NCBI GenBank assembly: GCA_020832825.1
Contig: JAJHRL010000004.1
Location: 1 to 37,604 of the forward strand
From: Candidatus Aenigmatarchaeota archaeon
GTDB lineage: Archaea > Aenigmatarchaeota > Aenigmatarchaeia > CG10238-14 > SpSt-28
Direction: 5' to 3'
Length of the DNA: 37,604 nucleotides
Shown here: piece by piece, positions 4,261 through 25,696 of the stretch
Numbering within the stretch: position 1 is the stretch's first letter
Layout of the letters: the number at the start of each line of letters is the position of its first letter
Notes under the pieces: generated by a model
What the model was told of the DNA's origin: nothing
The model's database searches: none
Seen by the model: only the letters and a program-made list of their open reading frames with translations
Position numbers and translations under genes: made by a program

Positions 4261-5154
4261 TTAGTAAGAAGCAACAACTGTTAGCGTTCCTAACTTTAAT
4301 TGGCCTGCTGGAATTCCTTTTGGAACATATGCACTTATGTATGTTATTCTATAGATATCTCCAGGTACTAATGTTCTTGTTGTCAAATATGCTGAATTTC
4401 CGCAACTTCCAAAACCAGGTCTCTTATCATATCTGTAAATGTAAATCTTACTACAATCTGATGCTACAGCTACACATACTGGCTCACCACCAAAAGCTGC
4501 TCTTCCAGTAACGCTAAAGTAACCGAAGTTTGCATCTCCTCCGCTTCTAGAAATTCCAGTTATTGTTGGTGTTCTTGCTACTGTACTTCCATCATCTGGT
4601 ATATCTGATATTGCAAATTTTGCGCCTGTATCATTACATCTATTGGTTGTTGTATCAGCACCTGCAGCCCATACATATTCAAAGCTTGTGTTTTTGTAGA
4701 AACCCCAAGCCTTTACATTAGTTACACCACTAAAGTCAGCTCCACTAATAGCATCTGTCCAGTTCCACTCTATTCTTCCTACAAACTTTGGAAGATTATC
4801 AGGATCTCCTTTTACTACAATAACTCCAGCAGCACTGTATTTGCTTGGATCACCAGTTCCATAGGGTCTTGTCGTTTCATCATCTAAAGTACTTGCATAG
4901 ATGTAAATGTTAGACACGTTTAATGAACCAGTGTTTTTTACATCAACACCTTGAACAACACCAGCGGATCCTGGATATATGTTGGTCCAATTCAGATAAT
5001 TCGGAACTACTGTTATTTCAGCTACTGCAGCTACTGTTACATTAACTGTTATGTTTGCTGACGTTTCAGCAGCTATTGCTGGAACTAATGGCATTACTAG
5101 AAAAACTGTAGCAAAGATTATTGGCAGAAGTGTTTTCAGTGGCATGTTTCTCAT
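4261..5154 (-). CDS. Secreted surface protein (signal peptide, no C-terminal TM), candidate surface or filament structural subunit
   Basis: 297-aa ORF; N-terminus MRNMPLKTLLPIIFATVFLVMPLVPAIAAE is a signal peptide; beta-rich, sequon-containing body; TTTATAAA about 25 nt upstream on the minus strand. Confidence 0.75.
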   Translation of the reverse strand: MRNMPLKTLLPIIFATVFLVMPLVPAIAAETSANITVNVTVAAVAEITVVPNYLNWTNIYPGSAGVVQGVDVKNTGSLNVSNIYIYASTLDDETTRPYGTGDPSKYSAAGVIVVKGDPDNLPKFVGRIEWNWTDAISGADFSGVTNVKAWGFYKNTSFEYVWAAGADTTTNRCNDTGAKFAISDIPDDGSTVARTPTITGISRSGGDANFGYFSVTGRAAFGGEPVCVAVASDCSKIYIYRYDKRPGFGSCGNSAYLTTRTLVPGDIYRITYISAYVPKGIPAGQLKLGTLTVVASY

Positions 5155-5181: not shown

Positions 5182-5247
5182 AACGTTAATGTTTAACTAT
5201 AATGTATATTTTGGAGTTAACAATTAATGTTAAACGTTAATGTTAAA
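5182..5247. promoter_or_regulatory. Divergent intergenic operator-like repeats (three TTAATGTT(T)AA copies) overlapping both promoters
   Basis: CGTTAATGTTTAA at 5184-5196, AATTAATGTTAAA at 5222-5234, CGTTAATGTTAAA at 5235-5247; the last two are a 13-bp tandem repeat. TATA-like elements TTTATAAA (minus) and TTAAATA (plus) abut or overlap them. Confidence 0.6.
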
Positions 5248-5269
5248 TACTCATGAAACAAATAAAAAT

Positions 5270-5530
5270 ATGGCAAAAAGCTCGGAAGAAACAAAAGAAA
5301 AAATTTACAGGATAATAAAAGAAAATCCAGAAGGGTTAACAATTCAGGAAGTTGCGAAAAAAGCTGGTGTTAGTAGAATAACAGCGAGCATTTACATTCA
5401 TGAACTTCTTGGTGAAGGAAAAATTACCCAAAGAAAAATAGGTGCATATAGAATTCTTTTCCCAAAAGAGAAAGTAATTGAAGAAGTAAAAATGAAAGAA
5501 CTGGTAGAGAAACTGAAGAAAAAATCTTAG
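5270..5530 (+). CDS. Small winged-helix/HTH transcriptional regulator
   Basis: EETKEKIYRIIKENPEGLTIQEVAKKAGVSRITASIYIHELLGEGKITQRKIGAYRILFP is a classic wHTH. ATG at 5270 preferred over 5240 because the earlier start lies inside the repeat/TATA region. Confidence 0.8.
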   Translation: MAKSSEETKEKIYRIIKENPEGLTIQEVAKKAGVSRITASIYIHELLGEGKITQRKIGAYRILFPKEKVIEEVKMKELVEKLKKKS

Positions 5531-5600: not shown

Positions 5601-6518
5601 ATGAAGAAAGGAATTTTGATATTGTTTGTTTTTATCGCTAGCTTGTTCTTCTCTAAAATTTCCTTATCTCAACAATACACAGTTGGTGTTTCTCCACCAA
5701 TAATAGATTTAGGAGATGTGAATAGAGGGGAGACAAAAAATGTAAAATTTTACATTGTTTCTCCCTCAAACGAAGAAATGTTAGTACATCTTATTCAATA
5801 TCCAGACAACTTAGATTTCGTAAGAGCTTACAATTCTAGCATTATTGCCAATTATTCTGAAGAAGATGTTTCAAGTTGGATTAAGTATTTTTCAAATCCA
5901 GTTCCTCTAAAACCACAAACACAACCATTACAAACCCCAATTGGCAAGATAACTAACTGGAGGGAAATAAGTTTCCTTCTTTCCATTCCAAATAATGCAG
6001 AACCAGGATATCATTCTTTTGGCATTCAACCAGAGCCAGAATTTACTGGTCAAGCTGGTGGCCAAGTTGGTGTTGGGATAATTGCTGTTACAAAAGTAAA
6101 CGTTATCTTTAGAGTTCCGGGAGAAGCGATAAGAAGTGGAGAAATTATAGATGCTTTGGGAGAGGGAAACAAAGTTAGAATTTTCTTTAAAAATACAGGA
6201 ACAGTAACGATGAAAGTTATTGCTAGCGGAGAGATTTATTACAACAATAAAACTTATTCTTTTTCTTCTGCTAGGGAAACTGTGAGACCAAATGAACTAA
6301 AAGAAATTGTTGCTTTTGTAAGTGAGCCATTAGAGGGAAATCTTGACTCAAAAATAACTGTTGATTATACTAGCGATAAACTTGAGAAGAAAATGGTTAT
6401 AAATTTTGTGAAAAAACCAATTCAAACTCAAAAACCAATTGACTTAACGTTTCTAATTTATATCATCTTGGCAATAGTAATAATTCTAGTAGCAAGGTGG
6501 ATTTATGAAAAGAGCTAG
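5601..6518 (+). CDS. Secreted, C-terminally membrane-anchored beta-domain protein
   Basis: Signal peptide MKKGILILFVFIASLFFSKISLSQ, 'VGVSPPIIDLGDVNRGETKNVKFYI' immunoglobulin-like N-domain, C-terminal TM 'LTFLIYIILAIVIILVARWIY'. Confidence 0.7.
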   Translation: MKKGILILFVFIASLFFSKISLSQQYTVGVSPPIIDLGDVNRGETKNVKFYIVSPSNEEMLVHLIQYPDNLDFVRAYNSSIIANYSEEDVSSWIKYFSNPVPLKPQTQPLQTPIGKITNWREISFLLSIPNNAEPGYHSFGIQPEPEFTGQAGGQVGVGIIAVTKVNVIFRVPGEAIRSGEIIDALGEGNKVRIFFKNTGTVTMKVIASGEIYYNNKTYSFSSARETVRPNELKEIVAFVSEPLEGNLDSKITVDYTSDKLEKKMVINFVKKPIQTQKPIDLTFLIYIILAIVIILVARWIYEKS

Positions 6519-7053
6519 AAAAGATAAAAAGCTGATAAATTTGTTATTTATGCCGCTCTTTGCTATACTTTTGTTTTTCATAATCTTCTTTCCAAAAGAG
6601 GAAAAGCAAGCTTTTGTAAAAAATTATACGATAGAGAAAAAAAGTAGAATCTTTTTTGATTATGAGATTACACGATATTATTCTGCTGCTAAGGTTATTG
6701 AGGTAAAACCTGGGGAAAACTATACTCTTGGGGTTGTTACAGATCCTTGGAATTTGAATTTTGGTGAAATTCCAGGAGGAGGAAGTTATGCAAGAAGATT
6801 TATCGATTTACAAAATTTAAGAGACAAGAAAGTGAGAGTAGAGTTGTATTCAATTGGAAACATTTCTAAGAAAGTAAAGTTTAGCGAAGATTCATTCTGG
6901 CTCAATCCAAATGAAAAGAAAAGAATAGATGTTTATTTCTTCACTAATGAAACAATTTCTGGCTTCTTTGAAGGAGAGATTAGAGTTGAAGTAAAAATAC
7001 CAAAGTACGACTTTATATATTCTTTGTATGGAATTTTTGGTGATCTAAAGTGA
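6505..7053 (+). CDS. Membrane-anchored extracellular protein of unknown function
   Basis: 182-aa ORF overlapping the upstream and downstream genes; N-terminal TM 'LLFMPLFAILLFFIIFF'. Confidence 0.65.
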   Translation: MKRARKDKKLINLLFMPLFAILLFFIIFFPKEEKQAFVKNYTIEKKSRIFFDYEITRYYSAAKVIEVKPGENYTLGVVTDPWNLNFGEIPGGGSYARRFIDLQNLRDKKVRVELYSIGNISKKVKFSEDSFWLNPNEKKRIDVYFFTNETISGFFEGEIRVEVKIPKYDFIYSLYGIFGDLK

Positions 7054-7751
7054 AGAAGCTTTTGCTGCTTTTTTTGATTATTCTTTTCGTTTTTACTGTT
7101 GGAAAATCTTTGATGGTTAATGTTGATGTAAGAGATGTTTGTTCTATTGAGATAAAAAGTTTGAATGTTTCTTTAGAAGGTTTGCCAAAAATAGATGCAG
7201 AAATTTACAATTCTGGCAGCCTTCCCTATACATTTAGAGTTTTGATAGAAGGAGAAAATAGAGTTTGGAGTTCAAAGATTTCTGAAGCTCCAGGAGACTT
7301 GAAGAGAGTTATCTTGTACTTTCTGCCTTCTAATGAAACAAAAATGAAAATTTATTTTTGCAACAAGATTTTTGAGAGAGAAATAGAACCAAAAGAAAAA
7401 GCATTTCACGAAGGAGGCTGGTTTTCTATAAACAAAGCAAGAGTTTATTCTGATTTTATTGTTTTGGAAGTCTATTCTAATGTTAGTGAAGAAGTTGTTA
7501 TCATGCCTTTACAATATCCGGAGAATTTGATTATTGAGAGTTATGTTGGAAGACTAAAAACTGGAAAAAACTTCGTCAAGATAAATTTTGAAGGGGAGAT
7601 AACAAGCGAGAGAAACATAAGTTTTGTTGTAGCTAGTATAGATGGAAAGTATTTTTCGATGAATGAAGTAAAGCTTGAAAAGAAGGTTGGATTAGAGTAT
7701 TGGTTTTTCTACATTTTGGATATTTTTAGAATTTGGTTATCTCGACAATAA
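7050..7751 (+). CDS. Secreted/membrane protein of unknown function
   Basis: 233-aa ORF with signal peptide KKLLLLFLIILFVFTVGKS, overlapping the upstream stop by 4 nt. Confidence 0.65.
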   Translation: MKKLLLLFLIILFVFTVGKSLMVNVDVRDVCSIEIKSLNVSLEGLPKIDAEIYNSGSLPYTFRVLIEGENRVWSSKISEAPGDLKRVILYFLPSNETKMKIYFCNKIFEREIEPKEKAFHEGGWFSINKARVYSDFIVLEVYSNVSEEVVIMPLQYPENLIIESYVGRLKTGKNFVKINFEGEITSERNISFVVASIDGKYFSMNEVKLEKKVGLEYWFFYILDIFRIWLSRQ

Positions 7752-7837
7752 GCGAGCAATTGTCTAGAAAGCGTGTGTCAACAATCAAATTTTCCATATT
7801 GTATCAATTTTGTTTATATACTGAAAATTTATTTTTT

Positions 7838-7878
7838 CAATATTGAAATAATGTTTTTAAATTATGGAAACAATATTG
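7838..7878. promoter_or_regulatory. Paired CAATATTG palindromes flanking a TATA-like element upstream of the wHTH-ectodomain gene
   Basis: CAATATTG at 7838-7845 and 7871-7878 (33-bp spacing) with TTTTTAAATTA between them; ATG at 7883. Confidence 0.6.
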
Positions 7879-7882
7879 AAAA

Positions 7883-10321
7883 ATGGATGAATCTCAACAA
7901 AAAATAGAAGATAAGCTTCTTGAAATTTTAAGCAAAGAGATTTTATCCATTTCTGAACTTTCTAGGAGATTGAATGTTAAAAGGTACATTCTTGCTGGCT
8001 ATCTAGAAGCTCTGAGAGAGCAAGGTAAGGTTGACGTTTTTAAGGTTGGAAAAGCTAAAGTTTATGTCGCTAAGGAAAAAACTAAAAAAGGACTTTGGTT
8101 GATTTTCTTTTTGGCTTTAATACCATTCTTTTTGCCTATGCCAACTCTTGCAGACATAAGCGTAAACTTTACACCATCCAACAAAATCTGGATAATAGAC
8201 ATAAATGGAAATCTAATGTATTTGCCAGAAGTTTTGAACGTAGGTGTCTATAATAATTCTGAACAATGTAACATCATCTCATCTTATTTAAATGTTTCAA
8301 CAGATGAAGGTTACAATAAAATTTCATTGAACTATTTTATTAGTAATGGAAAGCTTGTAATAGAAACAAAAAATATTTTAAGGAAAGAAGTAATTTCTGA
8401 GCAAGCCAGTTATTATCTACATTCAGACTTCTCATGTAGGAATGGAAATAGTTCCGATGAAACCAATTTAAATGTAAGTTATTTGTCAATTCGTACTAAT
8501 GTTTTTGATCGTGTCACTACTTCTAATACAATTTACGAAGATTCAGATGTAGTAGCCAGAATATATTTTGAGGAAAATGGAGTGCCTGTAGATGTAAGTA
8601 GTAATATTTTGAGTGTAAAGATAGACAATAATCAAATAAAAGTGTTACCCATCTATAATTCAAACCTGAATTCGAACGATATTTATTTGGGACAATTGCC
8701 TCAGGGAACTCATAAAATTAGCATTACACTTTCATATAAAGATCTAACCATACCAGTAATCCAGAGTGTTTATGTAACAAAGAAAATAAGTATAGACTCA
8801 ATTTCGTCCAGATACTTGTATCCAAATGCCACTTTGCTTGTATACCTTAACACTTCTATTCAACAATTTGATTTAAATTCTTTAGCAGTTTTTATTGATA
8901 ATACGCAAGCAAAAATAGTTTCAATTTCCGGAAATGCAATTAACATTTTAGCTCCATCTCTTTCTCCAGGAGAACATACTCTAACTGTTAGATATGGAAA
9001 CTATAGCGATTCAACTAAAGTATACTATGTTTCAAAGATAACTGGAAAGCTTTTAGATGATTCAAAGAAAGCAATCTTCACAAGATTTACACTATTCAAA
9101 GATGGAAATTCAGTTTTATCCACTACAACAAATTCGAGCGGAGACTATGAGATCGCTTTACCTCCTGGCTATTATGACTTAAAAGTCGAATTCCCTCAAG
9201 CAACTCTCTACTTCAAAAACTTTTACTTTAGAGACACAGATGGCTTGATAAATTATGTCTATAAAGATTCCGTTCCAATCAAAGGTTTGAGAGTTTATGG
9301 TTTCTACATTTTCGAGTTTTCTGGAGATTATTCTTCAGTTAGTTTAGATTTGAGATATAGTAAGATGAACGTAGAAGATGAAGACAGTATGAAAGTTTTC
9401 TATTGTAGCAATTGGAATTTTGCTAGTAATTCTTGCAATTCAAATTGGAAAATTTTAGATTTTACTTTAGATAAAATAAACTCGAAGGTTTCACTGAATT
9501 TAGACCATCTTTCAGCTTTTGTTGTTGGAAGGGAGGTTTCTCTAAAAGTTGCTTGTTCAATAAACAAAAACTCATTTTACATAAATGAAACAGCTTCAAT
9601 AAGTTGTTTAGTTGAAGACGAAGATGGCGATGCTGTTGAAAACGCTTCAATAACTCTAAACTTTAAAGGAAAAGTCATCAACGGTAAAACCGATGCAAAT
9701 GGAATATTTACTTACGAATATTTGGTTGATAGAGAGGGAAACTTTAATGTTAGCGTTTCTGCTTATAAAAATCCATATCTGAATGCTTCAAATTATTTCA
9801 CATTTTCTGCAGAAAAGAAAAAAGAGATTTTCATATCTTTTCCAGAGTTGGTAAAAGCTGAAGTAGGAGCAAACACAACTCTCGAATTTTCAATACTTAA
9901 CACTGGTCAAGCAGATTTAACAAATTTGCAAATTTATTTTGAAGACTTGCCTTTTAACTATATTATAACTCAAGATTACTTAGATAAAATCTCAGTTGGA
10001 GAAAGAAAGAATTTTACATTAATAATTTTCATTCCAGAAAATGCTTCAGTTGCAACTTATTCACCAAAGATTAAGGTTGTATCAAAAGAATTAGAAGCAA
10101 GCAAAAACTTTGGTTTGACTTTAATAAAAACAGAAAAATCCCAACCACAATCTGGTTTTGTTGTAAAATTACCACAAATCAATATAGACTCTCGTTACTC
10201 TTATTTAATAATTTTTGCAGCAATTTCCTTTTCTCTTGCTTTCTTTTTGAAAAGAGTGAAAAAGAGTAGGGAAAGAAGAGTTAACTACGATGACATATTT
10301 AGCAAATTGGAGGTTAGATAA
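7883..10321 (+). CDS. wHTH-TM-ectodomain-TM protein, putative one-component membrane transcriptional regulator/surface sensor
   Basis: N-terminal wHTH (KIEDKLLEILSKEILSISELSRRLNVKRYILAGYLEALREQGKVDVFKVGKAKVYVAKE), hydrophobic segment 'GLWLIFFLALIPFFLPMPTLA', about 650-aa sequon-rich beta ectodomain with CARDB-like region, C-terminal TM 'YLIIFAAISFSLAFFL' and cytoplasmic tail. Confidence 0.8.
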   Translation: MDESQQKIEDKLLEILSKEILSISELSRRLNVKRYILAGYLEALREQGKVDVFKVGKAKVYVAKEKTKKGLWLIFFLALIPFFLPMPTLADISVNFTPSNKIWIIDINGNLMYLPEVLNVGVYNNSEQCNIISSYLNVSTDEGYNKISLNYFISNGKLVIETKNILRKEVISEQASYYLHSDFSCRNGNSSDETNLNVSYLSIRTNVFDRVTTSNTIYEDSDVVARIYFEENGVPVDVSSNILSVKIDNNQIKVLPIYNSNLNSNDIYLGQLPQGTHKISITLSYKDLTIPVIQSVYVTKKISIDSISSRYLYPNATLLVYLNTSIQQFDLNSLAVFIDNTQAKIVSISGNAINILAPSLSPGEHTLTVRYGNYSDSTKVYYVSKITGKLLDDSKKAIFTRFTLFKDGNSVLSTTTNSSGDYEIALPPGYYDLKVEFPQATLYFKNFYFRDTDGLINYVYKDSVPIKGLRVYGFYIFEFSGDYSSVSLDLRYSKMNVEDEDSMKVFYCSNWNFASNSCNSNWKILDFTLDKINSKVSLNLDHLSAFVVGREVSLKVACSINKNSFYINETASISCLVEDEDGDAVENASITLNFKGKVINGKTDANGIFTYEYLVDREGNFNVSVSAYKNPYLNASNYFTFSAEKKKEIFISFPELVKAEVGANTTLEFSILNTGQADLTNLQIYFEDLPFNYIITQDYLDKISVGERKNFTLIIFIPENASVATYSPKIKVVSKELEASKNFGLTLIKTEKSQPQSGFVVKLPQINIDSRYSYLIIFAAISFSLAFFLKRVKKSRERRVNYDDIFSKLEVR

Positions 10322-10322
10322 G

Positions 10323-11084
10323 ATGAGAGTTATAGGCATACTATCCACAAAAGGAGGAGTTGGAAAAACAACAATAGCTTCAAATTTAGCTTTAGCTTTA
10401 CAAAGTTTTGGAAGACCAACTGTTTTGCTCGATTTTAACTTTACAACTCCACATGTTTCACTCTATTTCAACATTTTGCAAGCAGAGAAAACTCTAAACA
10501 ATTTCTTAAAGAACGAATGCAGTTTTAATGATATAATTTATAGACATTCATCAGGATTATCAATAGTACCAACTTCATTGAGTTTGAGCGATGTTGTTAG
10601 CATAGATGGTAATTTGAAGAATGTTATAGAGGAAAACCTAAATAATTTTGAGTTTGTTATAATTGATTCAGCTCCAGGTTTAGGAAGAGAAGCAATGATA
10701 TCTTTGAATAGCTGTCAAGAAGCAATTTTTGTCGCAACTCCAGATTTTGTTTCGGTTTTTGATGTGGCAAAAACTTACAAATTGATTAACAATTTGCCAG
10801 AAAAACCTATAGTTCTTGGAATTATTTTGAATAGAGTTAAAGGAAAAAGCTATGAGATGAGGAGAGAGGAAGTAGAAAGATATTCTGGTTTGCCAGTTTT
10901 AGCAGAGATTAAAGAAAGCGAAACTTTTCTAAAAAGCTTGAGCTTAAGAACTCCAGCTTTTCTTTTTGACAAGAATGTTTCTGAAACTTTTAAACAATTA
11001 GCTGCAAAAATCGCTGGAATTCCTTATGAGAAAGAAAAGATGATTGATAAAATACTAAAAATCTTTGGGTTGAGAAGATGGTGA
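10323..11084 (+). CDS. MinD/ParA-family ATPase
   Basis: Deviant Walker A 'STKGGVGKTTIASNLA', 'IIDSAPGLGREA', C-terminal amphipathic helix 'KMIDKILKIFGLRRW' (MinD-like membrane-targeting sequence). ATG 10323 preferred over 10290. Confidence 0.9.
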   Translation: MRVIGILSTKGGVGKTTIASNLALALQSFGRPTVLLDFNFTTPHVSLYFNILQAEKTLNNFLKNECSFNDIIYRHSSGLSIVPTSLSLSDVVSIDGNLKNVIEENLNNFEFVIIDSAPGLGREAMISLNSCQEAIFVATPDFVSVFDVAKTYKLINNLPEKPIVLGIILNRVKGKSYEMRREEVERYSGLPVLAEIKESETFLKSLSLRTPAFLFDKNVSETFKQLAAKIAGIPYEKEKMIDKILKIFGLRRW

Positions 11085-12910
11085 GAGATTTTTTTCTTTT
11101 GTTTCTTTTTTCTTTTTTTATTTTTCAAATTTCTTTGGCTCAAACAATTTCAGTTTCAAGTTTCAATCAAACTCAAACAACTAACATTACTGGTATTGCT
11201 TCAACAATTGACCAAGCAACAATTAATTCTTACTTGAATGTTAATGGAGATGGTCTAACTTGGGATGTTGATGAAGCTGCTATAACATTAGCTCCATTAA
11301 GAAATTCAACAATGGGGGGAGATACTACTCCTCCAGATGCTTGGGTAACTTCAGCAACTGTAACTCAAGGAACAGCTGCTTATGGTTATAACGTTACTGG
11401 AGGAAATCCAGCACCCTCATACTTCCATAAAGCAACAAGTTCAGCTGCAAAAGCAGCCGATATAACATTTTACACAAATCAAAGTTTCTATTATGATGGC
11501 TCACCTTCAGTTGTTACATTGAGCTGGGATTACCAAATTCTTGGAAATTCTTTTGGTACTGGAAACCAAATAAACATAATACTTTACAGACCTGATGGAA
11601 GTAGTTCAGTATTGGACACTATTACATTTTCAGCTGCCGTGCCTACATGGACAAGAAGGACAATTAATATTAACCCAGCTAATTTCACTCTGGCTGGAAC
11701 TTATGTTATTCAGCTGAAGTCAAGGTTAGTAGCAGCCGCAAAAGGAACATCTAATTATGTTCAAGCTCAGTATGATAATGTTTTTCTAAATTTTACCAAA
11801 TATCAGCTTTCAGTAGAACACAACGCAACAGTTAGCTACATAGGAACTTTAAGAAACATAAGCGTTTTAATAAACTTTACATCAACTAATAGCAAAACTT
11901 TCAACATGTCAATTTACGATTTTGTAAACTCTAATTGGGTAGCTTGTCAAAACATTTCTGCTTCTCCAAACGTTTATTATGATATTTGGTGTAACACAAC
12001 TTCCAATCCTTCTAAATTCATTTCTTCAGACGGAAAAATAAGGGTAAGATTAAACACAACTATAAGCAATATTTCAACTACATTGAAAGAAGAATACGTT
12101 CAATTCTACTTGTTTTATTCTGTTGGATATCTAGAAGTTAAGCTTATTTCTCCAGATGTAACAACCACTAATTACATAGTTCAAAACCAAACTTTTTGGG
12201 TTAATGCAACTGTAACTTGCAGAAATGGTGATTGTGGAATTGTCAATGGTACAGTTTTGTACAACCTAACATCAAGCTATCCAGACACTCCAATAAACAC
12301 TACTTATGGTGATAAACCATTTTTCATTAATGAAACTCCAGCTTCTGCAACAAAAACTTGCGGAGAATTGCTAGAAGATCAAAATTGTACTTTAAGCTGG
12401 CTTGTTAATGCTACTGGCGATGTTTATACTGCATGGAAGATTGCAGTTAATTTTAGTTCCAATTTTTCATATATTAATCAAAACACTACAGAAAACGCAA
12501 CCATTAAAATCTTACCATGCTCAATAGATTTTACGTTAACTTGGAATTCAATAGATTTTGGAGTTTTAAATCCATCAACTCAAGGAAATCCTGCTCCAGG
12601 AAATTCGCAACTTTTATACAACATAACAGTTAATCCAGGAAGCTGCAACTTAGATTTTTACATAAAAGGAGATGATCTTTACAATTCACAAACTAATACT
12701 TACTTGAAAATAAGCAACATGACGTTTAGCAACACAACAAATTCTTACTCATCTTCATATAGACTATTGAACACTTATCAGCTTCTCTTTTTCAACAAGG
12801 GCTTTGGAAATTACACTACCTATTATTGGATTGATATTCCTCCAATCTACGCTGGAACATACACATCAAAAATATATATCTTGGGTGTTTTGAGTGGCAC
12901 ATCTCCATAA
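11078..12910 (+). CDS. Large secreted beta-rich surface protein
   Basis: Signal peptide 'FFLLFLFSFFIFQISLAQ', many sequons, paired Cys, no obvious C-terminal TM; overlaps the end of the MinD gene. Confidence 0.75.
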   Translation: MVRDFFLLFLFSFFIFQISLAQTISVSSFNQTQTTNITGIASTIDQATINSYLNVNGDGLTWDVDEAAITLAPLRNSTMGGDTTPPDAWVTSATVTQGTAAYGYNVTGGNPAPSYFHKATSSAAKAADITFYTNQSFYYDGSPSVVTLSWDYQILGNSFGTGNQINIILYRPDGSSSVLDTITFSAAVPTWTRRTININPANFTLAGTYVIQLKSRLVAAAKGTSNYVQAQYDNVFLNFTKYQLSVEHNATVSYIGTLRNISVLINFTSTNSKTFNMSIYDFVNSNWVACQNISASPNVYYDIWCNTTSNPSKFISSDGKIRVRLNTTISNISTTLKEEYVQFYLFYSVGYLEVKLISPDVTTTNYIVQNQTFWVNATVTCRNGDCGIVNGTVLYNLTSSYPDTPINTTYGDKPFFINETPASATKTCGELLEDQNCTLSWLVNATGDVYTAWKIAVNFSSNFSYINQNTTENATIKILPCSIDFTLTWNSIDFGVLNPSTQGNPAPGNSQLLYNITVNPGSCNLDFYIKGDDLYNSQTNTYLKISNMTFSNTTNSYSSSYRLLNTYQLLFFNKGFGNYTTYYWIDIPPIYAGTYTSKIYILGVLSGTSP

Positions 12911-13478
12911 AATTTTTTCATTGGTAGTATTTTTCATTTTAGTATTTCACGCAGCTTTTGCATATGGAAGTTTGCCTATTTCAAGCTATGCAAAAACAAA
13001 AGTTGGAGAAACAGTCACTTTTGAAATTTTATTCTGGTCTGATGTTTCAGAAAAGATAAATTTTTATGCTGATAGCAATGAGAATTTTTTGGTCAATATA
13101 TTGCCAAACCCTCTATATTTGAATCCTTTCAAAAGAGAGGGAGAGATTTTAGTCGGAGGAAAGCCATACAACGTAACAAAAGTTAGAGTTTTCGTAACTC
13201 CAAAATCTGTAGGAAACTTTAGTGTTATTTTACATGCTAGAAAAGATGTTCCAACAAAAGATATAACTTTTGTAGATGAGAGAGTCTTCAAATTTTCTAT
13301 AGAAGTGCTAGGAAATCAAGAGAAAGAAACCAATCTTCAAGAATCCCAGCATGCAATAATCACTAAAGAAAGTCAAAGTGAAACTAATAAACAGCAAGAC
13401 AATACTCAGATGCTCATTTTTATCTTTTTGATAGTTCTAATAATTTTTATCTCAATTCTTATCTTCAAGTATTCTTGA
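12894..13478 (+). CDS. Membrane-anchored extracellular domain protein
   Basis: GTG start within the preceding gene; signal peptide 'IFSLVVFFILVFHAAFA'; C-terminal TM 'MLIFIFLIVLIIFISILIF'. Confidence 0.65.
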   Translation: MAHLHKIFSLVVFFILVFHAAFAYGSLPISSYAKTKVGETVTFEILFWSDVSEKINFYADSNENFLVNILPNPLYLNPFKREGEILVGGKPYNVTKVRVFVTPKSVGNFSVILHARKDVPTKDITFVDERVFKFSIEVLGNQEKETNLQESQHAIITKESQSETNKQQDNTQMLIFIFLIVLIIFISILIFKYS

Positions 13479-13539: not shown

Positions 13540-14775
13540 ATGGAAAGATATATCTTGATTTTCATCTTACTCTTAGTATCTATTCTTCTATTCTCAAGAT
13601 ATTCTGGCTATTTTGTATCTCCAACGGTTAGCGTTTCTATTGAACCAAAAAAGGAAGCAAAAATATTGTTGAACTACAAGCCGATAATAGATATTAGTGA
13701 AAAAGAGAACATAACTGCTGAAGTCGTCAATACAGGCTCAGTTAGTATTTATGAAGAGCTAATGGTAAGAATTTATTTTTACAACATAAGTTTAAGACCG
13801 ATTGCAGAATATTATGATTCTCCAAGAAATCTTTTGCCAGGAGATAGAACTGCATTTTTCCTCGTTTTTGTCCCAAACTCTACTGGAACTTATTTCATAC
13901 AAGCAAAGTCTACATACGATGGTAAAACAACTGAAACCTGGGGGAGATTTGATGTAATTATAACTCCGATACTTCAGCCAGTAATATTGCCTCCAGAAAA
14001 GGTGCCTCAATATATACCAACCCCAGTTTTCTTAGTACCACCGAAACTTTCAATCCAAATAAAAAACATAACAGATGCTTATCAGGACTCCTTCGTTTTA
14101 ATTCCAGTAACTTTAATTAATAGTGGTGAGAGAGACGCTTATGAAATAAGACCATATCTTTCTTATCCGAAATCTTTAGAGGTTTCAATTTCTCCACTTT
14201 ACATAAAGCAACTTTCTCCCGGAGAAAACGTTACATTCTTGCTTAACATAAAAATACCAAAAGATTTTCAAGTTGGTGTTTATCAGCTTTTGTTTGAAGC
14301 ATCTTCAAACGAGACAAGAGCATCAAAGGAATTTTATTTGAATGTATCTTCAAAGCCAATTGATTTGACTCAAGACATTTACGAAAAAATTTTGAGCGTT
14401 GAGTATATGCTTTCTCAAGCCAGAACAAGGATTAGTGCTTTAGAAATTAGAGGAATAGATGTTTCAAAGATAAATTCTACTTTAATTTTGGCTGAAATAC
14501 ACTTGAAAAAATCTAAAGATTATCTATCAAACAAACAGTTCGATGAGAGTTTATATGAATTGAATGAAGCGAGCAAATTGATAGCAGATGCTTTAATAGA
14601 GATAGAAGTTCTGATGATTGTAGCACCGAAGGCCTACTTGAATTATTTTATAATAGCAATAATTCTTATAGTAATTTTGACAATCGTTCTATTCATTATT
14701 CTTTACAGAAAAAGGAAAAAGAAGAGACCAAAACTATTGAGAGAATTGGAGAGCGAGAGCCAAACAACTGAATAA
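13540..14775 (+). CDS. CARDB/NEW3-like surface protein with helical hairpin, TM and basic tail
   Basis: Extracellular beta domain followed by 'KILSVEYMLSQARTRISALEIRGIDVSKINSTLILAEIHLKKSKDYLSNKQFDESLYELNEASKLI', TM and 'YRKRKKKRPK'. Confidence 0.75.
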   Translation: MERYILIFILLLVSILLFSRYSGYFVSPTVSVSIEPKKEAKILLNYKPIIDISEKENITAEVVNTGSVSIYEELMVRIYFYNISLRPIAEYYDSPRNLLPGDRTAFFLVFVPNSTGTYFIQAKSTYDGKTTETWGRFDVIITPILQPVILPPEKVPQYIPTPVFLVPPKLSIQIKNITDAYQDSFVLIPVTLINSGERDAYEIRPYLSYPKSLEVSISPLYIKQLSPGENVTFLLNIKIPKDFQVGVYQLLFEASSNETRASKEFYLNVSSKPIDLTQDIYEKILSVEYMLSQARTRISALEIRGIDVSKINSTLILAEIHLKKSKDYLSNKQFDESLYELNEASKLIADALIEIEVLMIVAPKAYLNYFIIAIILIVILTIVLFIILYRKRKKKRPKLLRELESESQTTE

Positions 14776-15613: not shown

Positions 15614-16396
15614 ATGGCAAGAATAATATCTGTTTTTTCATCAAAAGGAGGAGTTGGTAAAACAACAATAACAGCTAATTTAGGAGCCATACTTGCATCT
15701 AAGTTTCAAAAGAAAGTCACTCTTATAGATTGTAATTTAACATCTTCTCATTTGGCATTGTATCTTGGAATTTATTATTCGCCAATAACTTTGAATAAAG
15801 TTTTGAGAGGAGATTATCAAATCAGTGAAGCAATTTATATTCACTCAAGTGGAATGCAAGTTGTTCCTGCTTCTCTTTCAGTTACAGAGCTTGAAGGTTC
15901 AGATCTCTTGAAGTTGCCAAACGTTATATCATCTTTAGAGCCAACAAACGATTTTCTAATTTTAGATTCAGCTCCAGGCTTAGGAAGAGAAGCATTAGCT
16001 TCTTTAAAATCTTCAAGAGAAGTCTTGCTTGTTACAACACCAATTGTTTCTTCTGTTTTGGATATTGTTAGGGCTCAGGAAGTTTTGAGAGAGATTGGAG
16101 TAAAACCAATAGGAATTGTTGTTAATATGGCAACTGGAGCTAGCTATGAAATGAGAAAAGAAGAGATAGAACAATTGACTGGTTTGAAAGTAATAGCAAC
16201 AATACCATATGATAAAGATGTTTATAGGAGCACTGCATTAAAACAGCCAATATTTCTTTTGAATCCAAACAATAGAGCGAGCAAAGAACTTGTAAAGCTT
16301 GCAGCTTTTATAAGTGGAGTAGAATATTCTGAGAAGAAAAGTTTGTTTGAAAAAGTGGCTGATAAATTTAGAATTATAGGAAGCTATTTTAGCTGA
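15614..16396 (+). CDS. MinD/ParA-family ATPase (second paralog)
   Basis: 'SSKGGVGKTTITANLG', 'LDSAPGLGREA', amphipathic C-terminus 'SLFEKVADKFRIIGSYF'. Confidence 0.9.
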   Translation: MARIISVFSSKGGVGKTTITANLGAILASKFQKKVTLIDCNLTSSHLALYLGIYYSPITLNKVLRGDYQISEAIYIHSSGMQVVPASLSVTELEGSDLLKLPNVISSLEPTNDFLILDSAPGLGREALASLKSSREVLLVTTPIVSSVLDIVRAQEVLREIGVKPIGIVVNMATGASYEMRKEEIEQLTGLKVIATIPYDKDVYRSTALKQPIFLLNPNNRASKELVKLAAFISGVEYSEKKSLFEKVADKFRIIGSYFS

Positions 16397-21414: not shown

Positions 21415-21509
21415 GCTTCTAATTTCCTAAATAGCAGTGATATCAATTTCTTCTTTTTGTATCCAATCTAAGGAGATGGTTATAAAATCATTCTAAAAAC
21501 TTGAAGTTT

Positions 21510-21607
21510 GGGGCTGCTGGGATTTGAACCCAGATTAGCCGGTTTCCTCATTCTATCAGAGCTCCATTGCTGGAGCCGGCCGTCCTACCTGGTTAGACTA
21601 CAGCCCC
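21510..21607 (-). tRNA. tRNA-Trp(CCA) with a ~26-nt anticodon-loop intron
   Basis: Acceptor GGGGCTG/CAGCCCC, T arm CTGGG-TTCAAAT-CCCAG, anticodon stem GCCGG/CCGGC enclosing CTCCAG^CAATGGAGCTCTGATAGAATGAGGAA^A; intron at the canonical 37/38 position. Confidence 0.87.
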
Positions 21608-22281: not shown

Positions 22282-22842
22282 ATGAACGGTATTTTTCTTG
22301 AAAAGAGGGAGATTTTTGAGTACATTCTTGCTATTTTTGTTTTGACTTTCATATTTTCTTTCGAGGGTAGCAAATTTGTTTTTACTAATCTGACTAGAAG
22401 CTTTTTTGCTGTTGTTACAGCTTTTTTACTTCATGAAATAGCTCATAAATATGCTGCATCAAAACTTGGTTATTATGCTAGATTTCATTTCTACTTTCCT
22501 TCAGCAATCTTAGCTTTCCTATTAGCATTTACAGGTGTAAAAGTTGCTGCAATAGGCTACACAGTGCTTTATCCTTACAAATTCAAAAGCTGGATGTATA
22601 GAAGGTTAAAAATCTCGTTAGAAGAGGTCGGAAAGATAGCATTAGTTGGGCCGCTTGTTAACATATTTCTGGCTTATACTTCTTTCTTCCTTGGTTTTAG
22701 CTTTTTTAAAGATGTTAATAAATGGTTTGCTCTCTTCAATTTATTGCCAATCCCACCTCTTGATGGCTCTAAAGTGCTGCACTGGAAACTAGGAGGCTGG
22801 GCTTTCTTTTTTGCTCTAACAATTATTTTGATGATAATATGA
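22282..22842 (+). CDS. M50-family (site-2-protease-like) membrane metalloprotease
   Basis: 'HEIAHKYAA' (HExxH) and 'NLLPIPPLDGSKVLHW' in a multi-TM protein. Confidence 0.88.
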   Translation: MNGIFLEKREIFEYILAIFVLTFIFSFEGSKFVFTNLTRSFFAVVTAFLLHEIAHKYAASKLGYYARFHFYFPSAILAFLLAFTGVKVAAIGYTVLYPYKFKSWMYRRLKISLEEVGKIALVGPLVNIFLAYTSFFLGFSFFKDVNKWFALFNLLPIPPLDGSKVLHWKLGGWAFFFALTIILMII

Positions 22843-24884: not shown

Positions 24885-24943
24885 TTTTTACCCTCTTTTT
24901 TCTTTTTTATTTTTTGAGAGGTAAGAGTAGGACAACGTTTTCG

Positions 24944-25560
24944 TCAATGTCCGAGGGTTTTTTGTAATTTAATTAGAGGTAGTGTGGAAATTAAGGAAAT
25001 GGATCCGCTAATTAAAAATACCATACGGAAATCTAATATATCCGCAATTATACCAGCAATTAACATGGCTAGGGCACCACTATACCCCATAGCCATGTAA
25101 ACATAGCCAAGTTCTTCACCTCTCCTCTTTTTTGAAGTTATATCTGTCATCATAGCTTGCTAAGAAGGGGAAGCAAGGGAAGAACCTATTCCTAATAAAA
25201 GAAAGTTGTAGAGAACAAACATGATAGACATTCGTTACAAAAATATAACCAAAAATACCGGCTGAATTTACGAGGTTTGCAATAATAGAAAATTTTATTC
25301 TACCATACTTATCTGCTAATTTCCCCATAAAAGGTTGTATTGTTGAAAATACTATACCATAGATAGCATAGGCAATTCCGACAGAAAGCATATTTTCTCC
25401 AATATTTTTTACGAATATTGCATATATGGGTGCTATCATTTCAACGGTAAATGTAAAAAACACACTCCATAAAATCAGTAAAACTAGTGGCTTACGGTTG
25501 CTTATTATTTGGAATTGTAGCGGAAGATTAAAAATACAAAAAGGTAGACCGACTAATGAA
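24944..25560 (-). pseudogene. Degraded MFS transporter (half-length, frame-disrupted)
   Basis: 'MLSVGIAYAIYGIVFSTIQPFMGKLADKYGRIKFSIIANLVNSAGIFGYIF' (25116-25592 ORF) and 'TSKKRRGEELGYVYMAMGYSGALAMLIAGIIADILDFRMVFLISGSISLIS' (24944-25153 ORF) are consecutive MFS segments in different frames; the 5' end of the ORF runs into a tRNA. Confidence 0.75.
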
Positions 25561-25568
25561 TTGATTTT

Positions 25569-25696
25569 GCAGGGGGTGGGATTTGAACCCACGAAGGGAC
25601 TAACCCAGCAGGTTTCTTCTTACCACCTAAGCCTCGGCTAATTCTGAGCTTCAGCTTTTTTATCTGCCGCCATCGACCAGGCTAGGCGACCCCTGC
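25569..25696 (-). tRNA. tRNA-Leu(TAG), apparently with two introns (31 nt at 30/31 and 12 nt at 37/38)
   Basis: Acceptor GCAGGGG/CCCCTGC, T arm GTGGG-TTCAAAT-CCCAC, long variable arm GGGTTAGTCCC. Removing ATAAAAAAGCTGAAGCTCAGAATTAGCCGAG and TGGTAAGAAGAA gives anticodon arm GCAGG-CTTAGGA-CCTGC. Confidence 0.85.

What the first reader, a model, noticed from the sequence alone, without database searches (positions are those of the whole stretch)
7838..13478. Candidate undescribed surface-sensing operon: wHTH-TM-ectodomain protein + MinD ATPase + surface proteins
Seen: an 812-aa protein with an N-terminal winged helix, a hydrophobic segment, a large sequon-rich ectodomain, and a C-terminal TM with a cytoplasmic tail. 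Its gene is followed with 0-17 nt spacing or overlap by a MinD-like ATPase (10323), a secreted protein (11078) and a membrane-anchored protein (12894). Known: MinD/ParA ATPases position cellular machinery on membranes, and the C-terminal amphipathic helix suggests membrane binding. Inference: one transcription unit couples surface-state sensing, spatial positioning and surface-structure production. The first hydrophobic segment also resembles a cleavable signal peptide (PTLA|DI). Cleavage there could release the wHTH, and an M50 protease lies at 22282, though nothing beyond shared replicon links them.
Basis: partly seen in the sequence, partly recalled or inferred. Interest (0 to 1): 0.8.

Follow-up and report, generated by a model that had tools for sequence, protein, structure and literature searches.

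The report
Archaeal surface-protein operon with MinD
A tiny, uncultured (DPANN) archaeon carries a widely conserved but undescribed gene cluster that pairs cell-surface proteins with a membrane-positioning ATPase and its own small DNA-binding regulator, whereas the striking "sensor fused to a DNA-binding head" is most likely two ordinary neighbouring genes joined by one missing letter.

Summary
The genes are real and densely packed, and the neighbourhood is conserved, but the centrepiece is misread. The window is from an Aenigmatarchaeota-like DPANN archaeon. In 27 of 29 strong relatives the N-terminal winged helix (residues 1-68) is a stand-alone 64-143-aa ORF. No other full-length ectodomain homologue found carries it, and those aligned begin with their own signal peptide. 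In five relatives with the window's gene order the wHTH ORF abuts or overlaps the ectodomain gene. Adding one A to the A6 run at 8076-8081 restores both genes here. The fusion is therefore a one-base indel (artefact or recent), not a conserved membrane-bound regulator.

What is conserved is larger: U1-U2-U3-(wHTH)-MinD/ectodomain(-P3-P4-P5), with secreted S2 proteins alongside. MinD adjoins the ectodomain gene in about 35 of 45 loci across several DPANN lineages. A CAAT/ATTG motif brackets the TATA box (7813-7820) and is shared by six promoters (0 of 500 shuffles), pointing to autoregulation by the wHTH. U1 is predicted to fold like WxL-interacting protein.

Best model: an autoregulated surface-assembly operon whose cytoplasmic MinD works with the ectodomain protein's short tail. 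Sensing and wHTH release are unsupported.

The parts
7794..7808 (+). Upstream operator-like element CCATATTGTATCAAT, just upstream of the TATA box
   Evidence: ATATTGTATC(A/T)AT motif shared by 6 wHTH-ectodomain promoters, 0 of 500 dinucleotide shuffles reach it; best match in own genome
7813..7820 (+). TATA box (TTTATATA), putative promoter of the wHTH-ECTO-MinD unit
   Evidence: read directly from sequence; transcription start not mapped
7835..7848 (.). Palindrome TTTCAATATTGAAA at the expected transcription start
   Evidence: TCAATATTGA recurs among fetched loci only at the G055 wHTH promoter
7870..7879 (.). Second CAATATTG copy (ACAATATTGA) just before the start codon
   Evidence: the paired arrangement is unique in the own genome
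7883..8086 (+). wHTH domain (residues 1-68); a separate gene of about 70 aa in nearly all relatives
8064..8085 (+). Junction: latent ATG (8064-8066), A6 run (8076-8081), latent TAA (8083-8085); one added base gives two overlapping genes
8087..10321 (+). ECTO: signal peptide, Ig-like/CarboxypepD_reg ectodomain, C-terminal TM and basic cytoplasmic tail
10323..11084 (+). MinD-type ATPase (KGGVGKT) with basic hydrophobic C-terminal tail
11078..12910 (+). P3: secreted protein with variable N-terminal part and conserved ~170-aa C-terminal domain
12894..13478 (+). P4: signal peptide, Ig-like region, C-terminal TM
13540..14775 (+). P5: membrane-anchored CARDB/NEW3-like protein
5601..6518 (+). U1: two Ig-like domains plus C-terminal TM, WxLIP-like predicted fold
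6505..7053 (+). U2: conserved membrane-anchored protein
7050..7751 (+). U3: conserved secreted/membrane protein
4261..5154 (-). S2: secreted protein, up to four copies at some relatives' loci
5240..5530 (+). Second, different wHTH gene (96 aa) between S2 and U1; similar small HTH ORFs lie beside S2 in some relatives

Best explanation
This is an autoregulated DPANN-archaeal operon for a cell-surface assembly. U1-U2-U3 and the ectodomain protein (ECTO), with P3-P5 and S2, are secreted or membrane-anchored surface components. A cytoplasmic MinD-type ATPase is encoded beside ECTO and most likely binds the membrane and ECTO's short basic C-terminal tail, to place or gate the assembly in the envelope. 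The wHTH is normally a separate regulator of about 70 aa. It most likely binds, as a dimer, CAAT/ATTG palindromes that bracket the TATA box and start site, and so sets (probably represses) transcription of its own operon. In this assembly the wHTH and ECTO genes read as one ORF because of a one-base indel, most simply in a poly-A run. Shown: gene conservation and order, MinD-ECTO adjacency, separateness of the wHTH in relatives, the shared promoter motif, and U1's predicted WxLIP-like fold. Inferred: wHTH binding to the motif and its sign, the MinD-tail interaction, and the assembly function.
For: 27 of 29 strong wHTH relatives are stand-alone ORFs. No other of 39 full-length ectodomain homologues carries it, and those aligned have their own signal peptides. 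In five relatives with the same gene order the wHTH ORF abuts or overlaps ECTO. One A added to the A6 run restores both genes. MinD adjoins ECTO in 21 of 30 plus 14 of 15 loci, in at least two MinD lineages. Promoter motif shared by six promoters from three families, 0 of 500 shuffles. U1 best fold match is WxLIP, E 7.4e-11. FleN/MinD ATPases associate with archaeal surface structures (PMC4858521).
Against: No binding, expression or localisation data. G025 and G026, which also have the wHTH, share the promoter motif poorly. MinD is not adjacent in about 10 of 45 loci, though some of these are contig ends. wHTH is absent from most MinD-ECTO clusters, so it is not essential to the module. The indel restoration has a 5-9% chance rate in codon shuffles. 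Deep MinD branches are weakly supported.
Confidence: 0.62

Rival explanations
1. One reading: a genuine wHTH-TM-ectodomain one-component sensor (CadC/ToxR-like in topology) reads the surface state and regulates its operon, optionally with cleavage at PTLA|DI releasing or tethering the wHTH.
For: The ORF is open as assembled, with a lysine-rich stretch before the hydrophobic segment. The promoter carries plausible operators. A second fusion of the same wHTH, to MinD, exists in G022.
Against: Fusion absent from every other relative; the hydrophobic segment aligns with cleavable signal peptides; one added base gives two canonical genes.
Confidence: 0.08
2. The fusion or its A6 run is real and used: transcript slippage or -1 frameshifting at A6 yields both separate wHTH and ECTO proteins and some fused, membrane-tethered wHTH that feeds back on the operon.
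For: A6 lies exactly where a -1 slip ends the wHTH frame at TAA, and the ECTO-frame ATG (8064) enters the ECTO frame by the same slip.
Against: No other member of the family has this arrangement; no canonical slippery heptamer in frame; no RNA or protein data.
Confidence: 0.1
3. The cluster is an accessory part of an archaeal type IV pilus-like machine, with MinD acting as the FleN/MinD regulator of that pilus.
For: In three relatives (G008, G012, G016) the cluster directly follows a large membrane protein and four small pilin-like proteins. FleN/MinD ATPases are linked to archaeal type IV pili (PMC4858521).
Against: No secretion ATPase seen, and no confirmed TadC or pilin family hit (T2SSF E 0.57). 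No such genes beside the cluster at most other loci.
Confidence: 0.12
4. Co-location without shared mechanism: a general surface-protein (S-layer-like) locus next to one of five MinD paralogues.
For: The genome has five MinDs, and some ECTO loci lack an adjacent MinD.
Against: Adjacency in about 35 of 45 divergent loci, with overlapping or near-abutting ORFs, and from at least two MinD lineages.
Confidence: 0.08

Closest known systems
WxL / WxL-interacting protein (WxLIP) gene clusters of Firmicutes (PMC10599100)
   Same: U1 is predicted as two tandem Ig-like domains plus a C-terminal TM helix and matches WxLIP best of all solved structures. The cluster also holds a secreted protein with variable N-terminal part and conserved C-terminal domain (P3).
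   Different: No significant sequence match to WxLIP (one of 12 members, E 0.11); no WxL domain found in S2 or P3; archaeal host without the Gram-positive wall; MinD and wHTH present.
FleN/MinD ATPases linked to archaeal type IV pili and archaella (Makarova et al. 2016, PMC4858521)
   Same: A MinD-family ATPase encoded in or near surface-structure operons in archaea, proposed as a regulator.
   Different: Here the constant partner is a single-pass ectodomain protein and a WxLIP-like protein, not a secretion ATPase and TadC.
Haloferax volcanii MinD2 and MinD4 (PMC11588486, PMC11621097)
   Same: Archaeal MinD-family proteins reported to affect motility, cell shape and localisation of other proteins.
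   Different: Different operon partners; no surface-protein partner like ECTO in the text read.
Membrane-bound one-component regulators (CadC, ToxR; from general knowledge)
   Same: Topology of the ORF as assembled: N-terminal wHTH, hydrophobic segment, ectodomain.
   Different: The fusion is not conserved, and the hydrophobic segment is a signal peptide in relatives.

Membership tests
MinD/ParA ATPase (archaeal MinD) | Deviant Walker A motif KGGVGKT and ParA/MinD family match | tested here: met
   Invariant KGGVGKT; AAA_31, ParA and CbiA above Pfam cut-offs. TIGR01969 minD_arch E 8.6e-47 but below its curated cut-off (159 against 202 bits) for P0002; the second MinD passes.
MinD/ParA ATPase (archaeal MinD) | C-terminal membrane-targeting amphipathic helix | tested here: inconclusive
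   Basic, hydrophobic C-terminal tails recur (window ...KMIDKILKIFGLRRW). Membrane binding not assayed.
WxLIP (DUF916-DUF3324) | Two tandem Ig-like domains plus C-terminal TM helix | tested here: met
   Predicted model, pLDDT 86.7; best PDB matches 9i25_C and 9i1y, E 7.4e-11 and 3.7e-10.
WxLIP (DUF916-DUF3324) | Sequence match to the WxLIP families | tested here: not met
   WxLIP_HBD in 1 of 12 members at E 0.11; no WxLIP_PGBD.
WxLIP (DUF916-DUF3324) | WxL-domain proteins in the same cluster | tested here: not met
   No WxL match in members of S2 or of the P3 C-terminal domain.
Membrane-bound one-component regulator (CadC/ToxR type) | Conserved wHTH-TM-ectodomain fusion in one polypeptide | tested here: not met
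   Only the window; 27 of 29 strong wHTH relatives stand alone, 1 is fused to MinD.
Archaeal type IV pilus locus | Secretion ATPase, TadC-like platform and class III pilins in the cluster | tested here: inconclusive
   A possible T2SSF-like protein and small pilin-like proteins only beside three relatives' clusters; none in the window.
ArsR-like wHTH regulator | Family match above the curated cut-off | tested here: inconclusive
   HTH_5 in 10 of 13 members, best E 6.1e-7; for the window's domain 17.5 bits against a cut-off of 22.
ArsR-like wHTH regulator | Binding to an inverted-repeat operator | not testable with these tools
   Conserved CAAT/ATTG motif found; binding not assayed.

The most novel reading that the evidence does not exclude
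U1-U2-U3-MinD-ECTO is a dedicated, previously undescribed DPANN envelope machine: a MinD ATPase docks on the cytoplasmic tail of a bitopic surface protein to place a WxLIP-like surface apparatus, perhaps the host-attachment site, and in some lineages a tiny autoregulatory wHTH sets its dosage.
Probability: 0.3. Interest if true: 0.78.

Novelty: new variant of a known kind. Interest (0 to 1): 0.55.

Why it matters
DPANN archaea mostly live attached to hosts, yet how they build and place surface structures is largely unknown. A gene set conserved over several DPANN lineages that couples a MinD ATPase to one particular membrane protein gives named, testable components for spatial control of the archaeal surface, and U1 suggests a structural parallel with the WxL surface systems of Firmicutes. 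The case also shows how a one-base indel can mimic a membrane-bound transcription factor.

Tried and rejected
S2 as a TasA/AbpA or donor-strand pilus protein: no fold or sequence support (TasA only at E 1.1). P3 C-terminal domain as WxL or pilin: one weak Fimbrial hit in one member (E 0.0032), no WxL. U1 by sequence in the PDB: only TM-helix chance hits. ECTO in the PDB: nothing convincing. The genome-contig scan with the whole 812-aa protein found nothing; the U1 alignment worked. The excess of CAATATTG in the window (7 against 1.05 expected) is not all regulatory: the other five copies are not in this promoter. That some single indel of any kind restores two genes is uninformative (81% of random controls); only the homopolymer version carries weight, and not much. 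The M50 protease and wHTH-release idea: no evidence beyond a shared contig. Literature searches found no description of this cluster, or of MinD with surface operons in Aenigmarchaeota.

Full report
Setting. The window is contig C24 of a 703-kb, 86-contig draft (82.5% complete) with five MinD paralogues. The relatives that carry record titles are Candidatus Aenigmatarchaeota and other DPANN lineages, so the organism is a DPANN archaeon, very probably an aenigmatarchaeote.

The observation. The reported ORFs exist and are packed as described. MinD most likely starts at 10323, one base after the 812-aa ORF's stop. Pfam finds CarboxypepD_reg above its cut-off in the 812-aa protein, TIG just above, and sub-threshold Big_1, HTH_11 and NEW3-type matches; it finds clear ParA/MinD matches in the ATPase. 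The ectodomain is not unusually rich in sequons: 16 against 11.3 in shuffles, maximum 20.

The fusion. Searching 57 genomes with the 812-aa protein gave separate matches for residues 1-68 and for the rest, the wHTH part lying in small ORFs. A wHTH profile (A2) run on 156 genomes of the phylum gave 29 strong hits: 27 stand-alone ORFs (open frames of 64-143 aa), one (G022) fused to MinD, and one, the window, fused to the ectodomain. An ectodomain profile (A3) found 39 full-length homologues including the window's, and no other is joined to a wHTH. The homologues aligned begin with a signal peptide of their own. In G055, G058, G060, G071 and G082 the gene order matches the window's and the wHTH ORF abuts or overlaps the ectodomain gene.

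The junction. One extra A in the A6 run (8076-8081) gives ...VGKAKVYVAKEKN* for the wHTH and, from the ATG at 8064, MSLRKKTKKGLWLIFFLALIPFFLPMPTLA|DI for the ectodomain protein. A homopolymer indel would do this in 5-9% of codon-shuffled controls, so the comparative evidence carries the argument. Whether the missing base is an assembly error or a real, recent mutation cannot be decided here. A frameshifted MFS gene in the same contig shows that indels of one origin or the other occur in it.

The conserved unit. The cluster is larger than the finding. U1 (5601-6518), U2 and U3 precede the wHTH; P5 follows P4; S2 and a second wHTH lie upstream. U1-U2-U3-(wHTH)-MinD-ECTO, or U1-U2-U3-wHTH-ECTO-MinD-P3-P4-P5, recurs across Aenigmatarchaeota; clusters with U1 and ECTO also occur in records titled Nanohalarchaeota, Altiarchaeales and Nanoarchaeota. 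MinD is immediately beside ECTO in 21 of 30 loci and in 14 of 15 further ones. MinDs placed before ECTO mostly fall in one supported clade (99/98). The MinDs placed after ECTO, including the window's, lie outside it, so the pairing probably arose more than once, although the deep branches are weak.

The wHTH as autoregulator. Six promoters of wHTH-ectodomain operons share ATATTGTATC(A/T)AT close upstream of the TATA box; the window's best 10-, 12- and 14-mers were not matched by any of 500 dinucleotide shuffles. The six promoters come from three families, so they are not six independent cases. The window adds TTTCAATATTGAAA at the expected start site and ACAATATTGA before the start codon. The paired arrangement is unique in the genome, and TCAATATTGA recurs among the loci then held only at the G055 wHTH promoter. 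Sites on both sides of the TATA box and over the start suggest repression; that is inference. The G025 and G026 promoters do not share the motif well. Members of the same wHTH family also stand directly before giant surface-protein genes (1,000-2,500 aa) in other genomes, so pairing this wHTH with surface genes looks like a general theme.

The surface parts. The U1 model (pLDDT 86.7) has two Ig-like domains and a C-terminal TM. Its best solved-structure match is the WxL-interacting protein of Enterococcus faecium (E 7.4e-11, probability 1.0, TM-score 0.44 on the query), a protein with the same domain plan (PMC10599100). Sequence-family membership fails, and no WxL domain is recognised in S2 or P3. 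U1 therefore looks like, but is not shown to be, a WxLIP. S2 is predicted well (pLDDT 87.6) but matches nothing.

Mechanism. ECTO is a single-pass protein once its signal peptide is removed, with a short basic cytoplasmic tail that in many members ends in an IKxEI-type segment. MinD carries an intact KGGVGKT motif and a basic, hydrophobic C-terminus. The most economical model is that MinD binds the membrane and the ECTO tail to position or gate the surface assembly. FleN/MinD ATPases linked to archaeal pili are a precedent (PMC4858521). No step of this was tested.

Verdict. The membrane-tethered sensor is very probably the product of a one-base indel. The conserved operon, its autoregulatory-looking promoter and the MinD-ECTO pair are the real finding. 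I found no earlier description, but only open-access papers were searched.

Noticed in passing
window 15614-16396 (+): A second MinD (42% identical to the first) lies 3' of the operon; a similar second MinD lies close downstream of the cluster in G055, G060, G071 and G082.
   Followed up: partly
window ~24900-25592 (-): MFS transporter gene broken by a frameshift and a stop: a pseudogene or indel errors in the contig.
   Followed up: partly
L113, L119, L123, L124, L125, L126, L051, L054, L055: The same small wHTH family stands directly upstream of giant (1,000-2,500 aa) surface proteins in many Aenigmatarchaeota, often in otherwise unrelated loci; a possible general regulator of surface proteins.
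   Followed up: partly
L040:7606-8613 (-) (G022:C57): Natural fusion of the wHTH to the operon's MinD (335 aa).
   Followed up: partly
L039:1171-5286, L044:13150-17225, L046:1313-5375: In three relatives the U1-U2-U3-MinD-ECTO cluster follows a conserved large membrane protein plus four small pilin-like proteins, perhaps an unrecognised pilus.
   Followed up: partly
window 4261-5154 (-) and relatives (alignment A4): S2 family: confidently predicted fold (pLDDT 87.6) with no match in the PDB or viral structure libraries.
   Followed up: partly
window 21509-21607 (-): ARAGORN reports a tRNA of undefined type with a four-base anticodon (gcaa) beside tRNA-Val; possibly an intron-bearing tRNA or a false call.
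   Followed up: no
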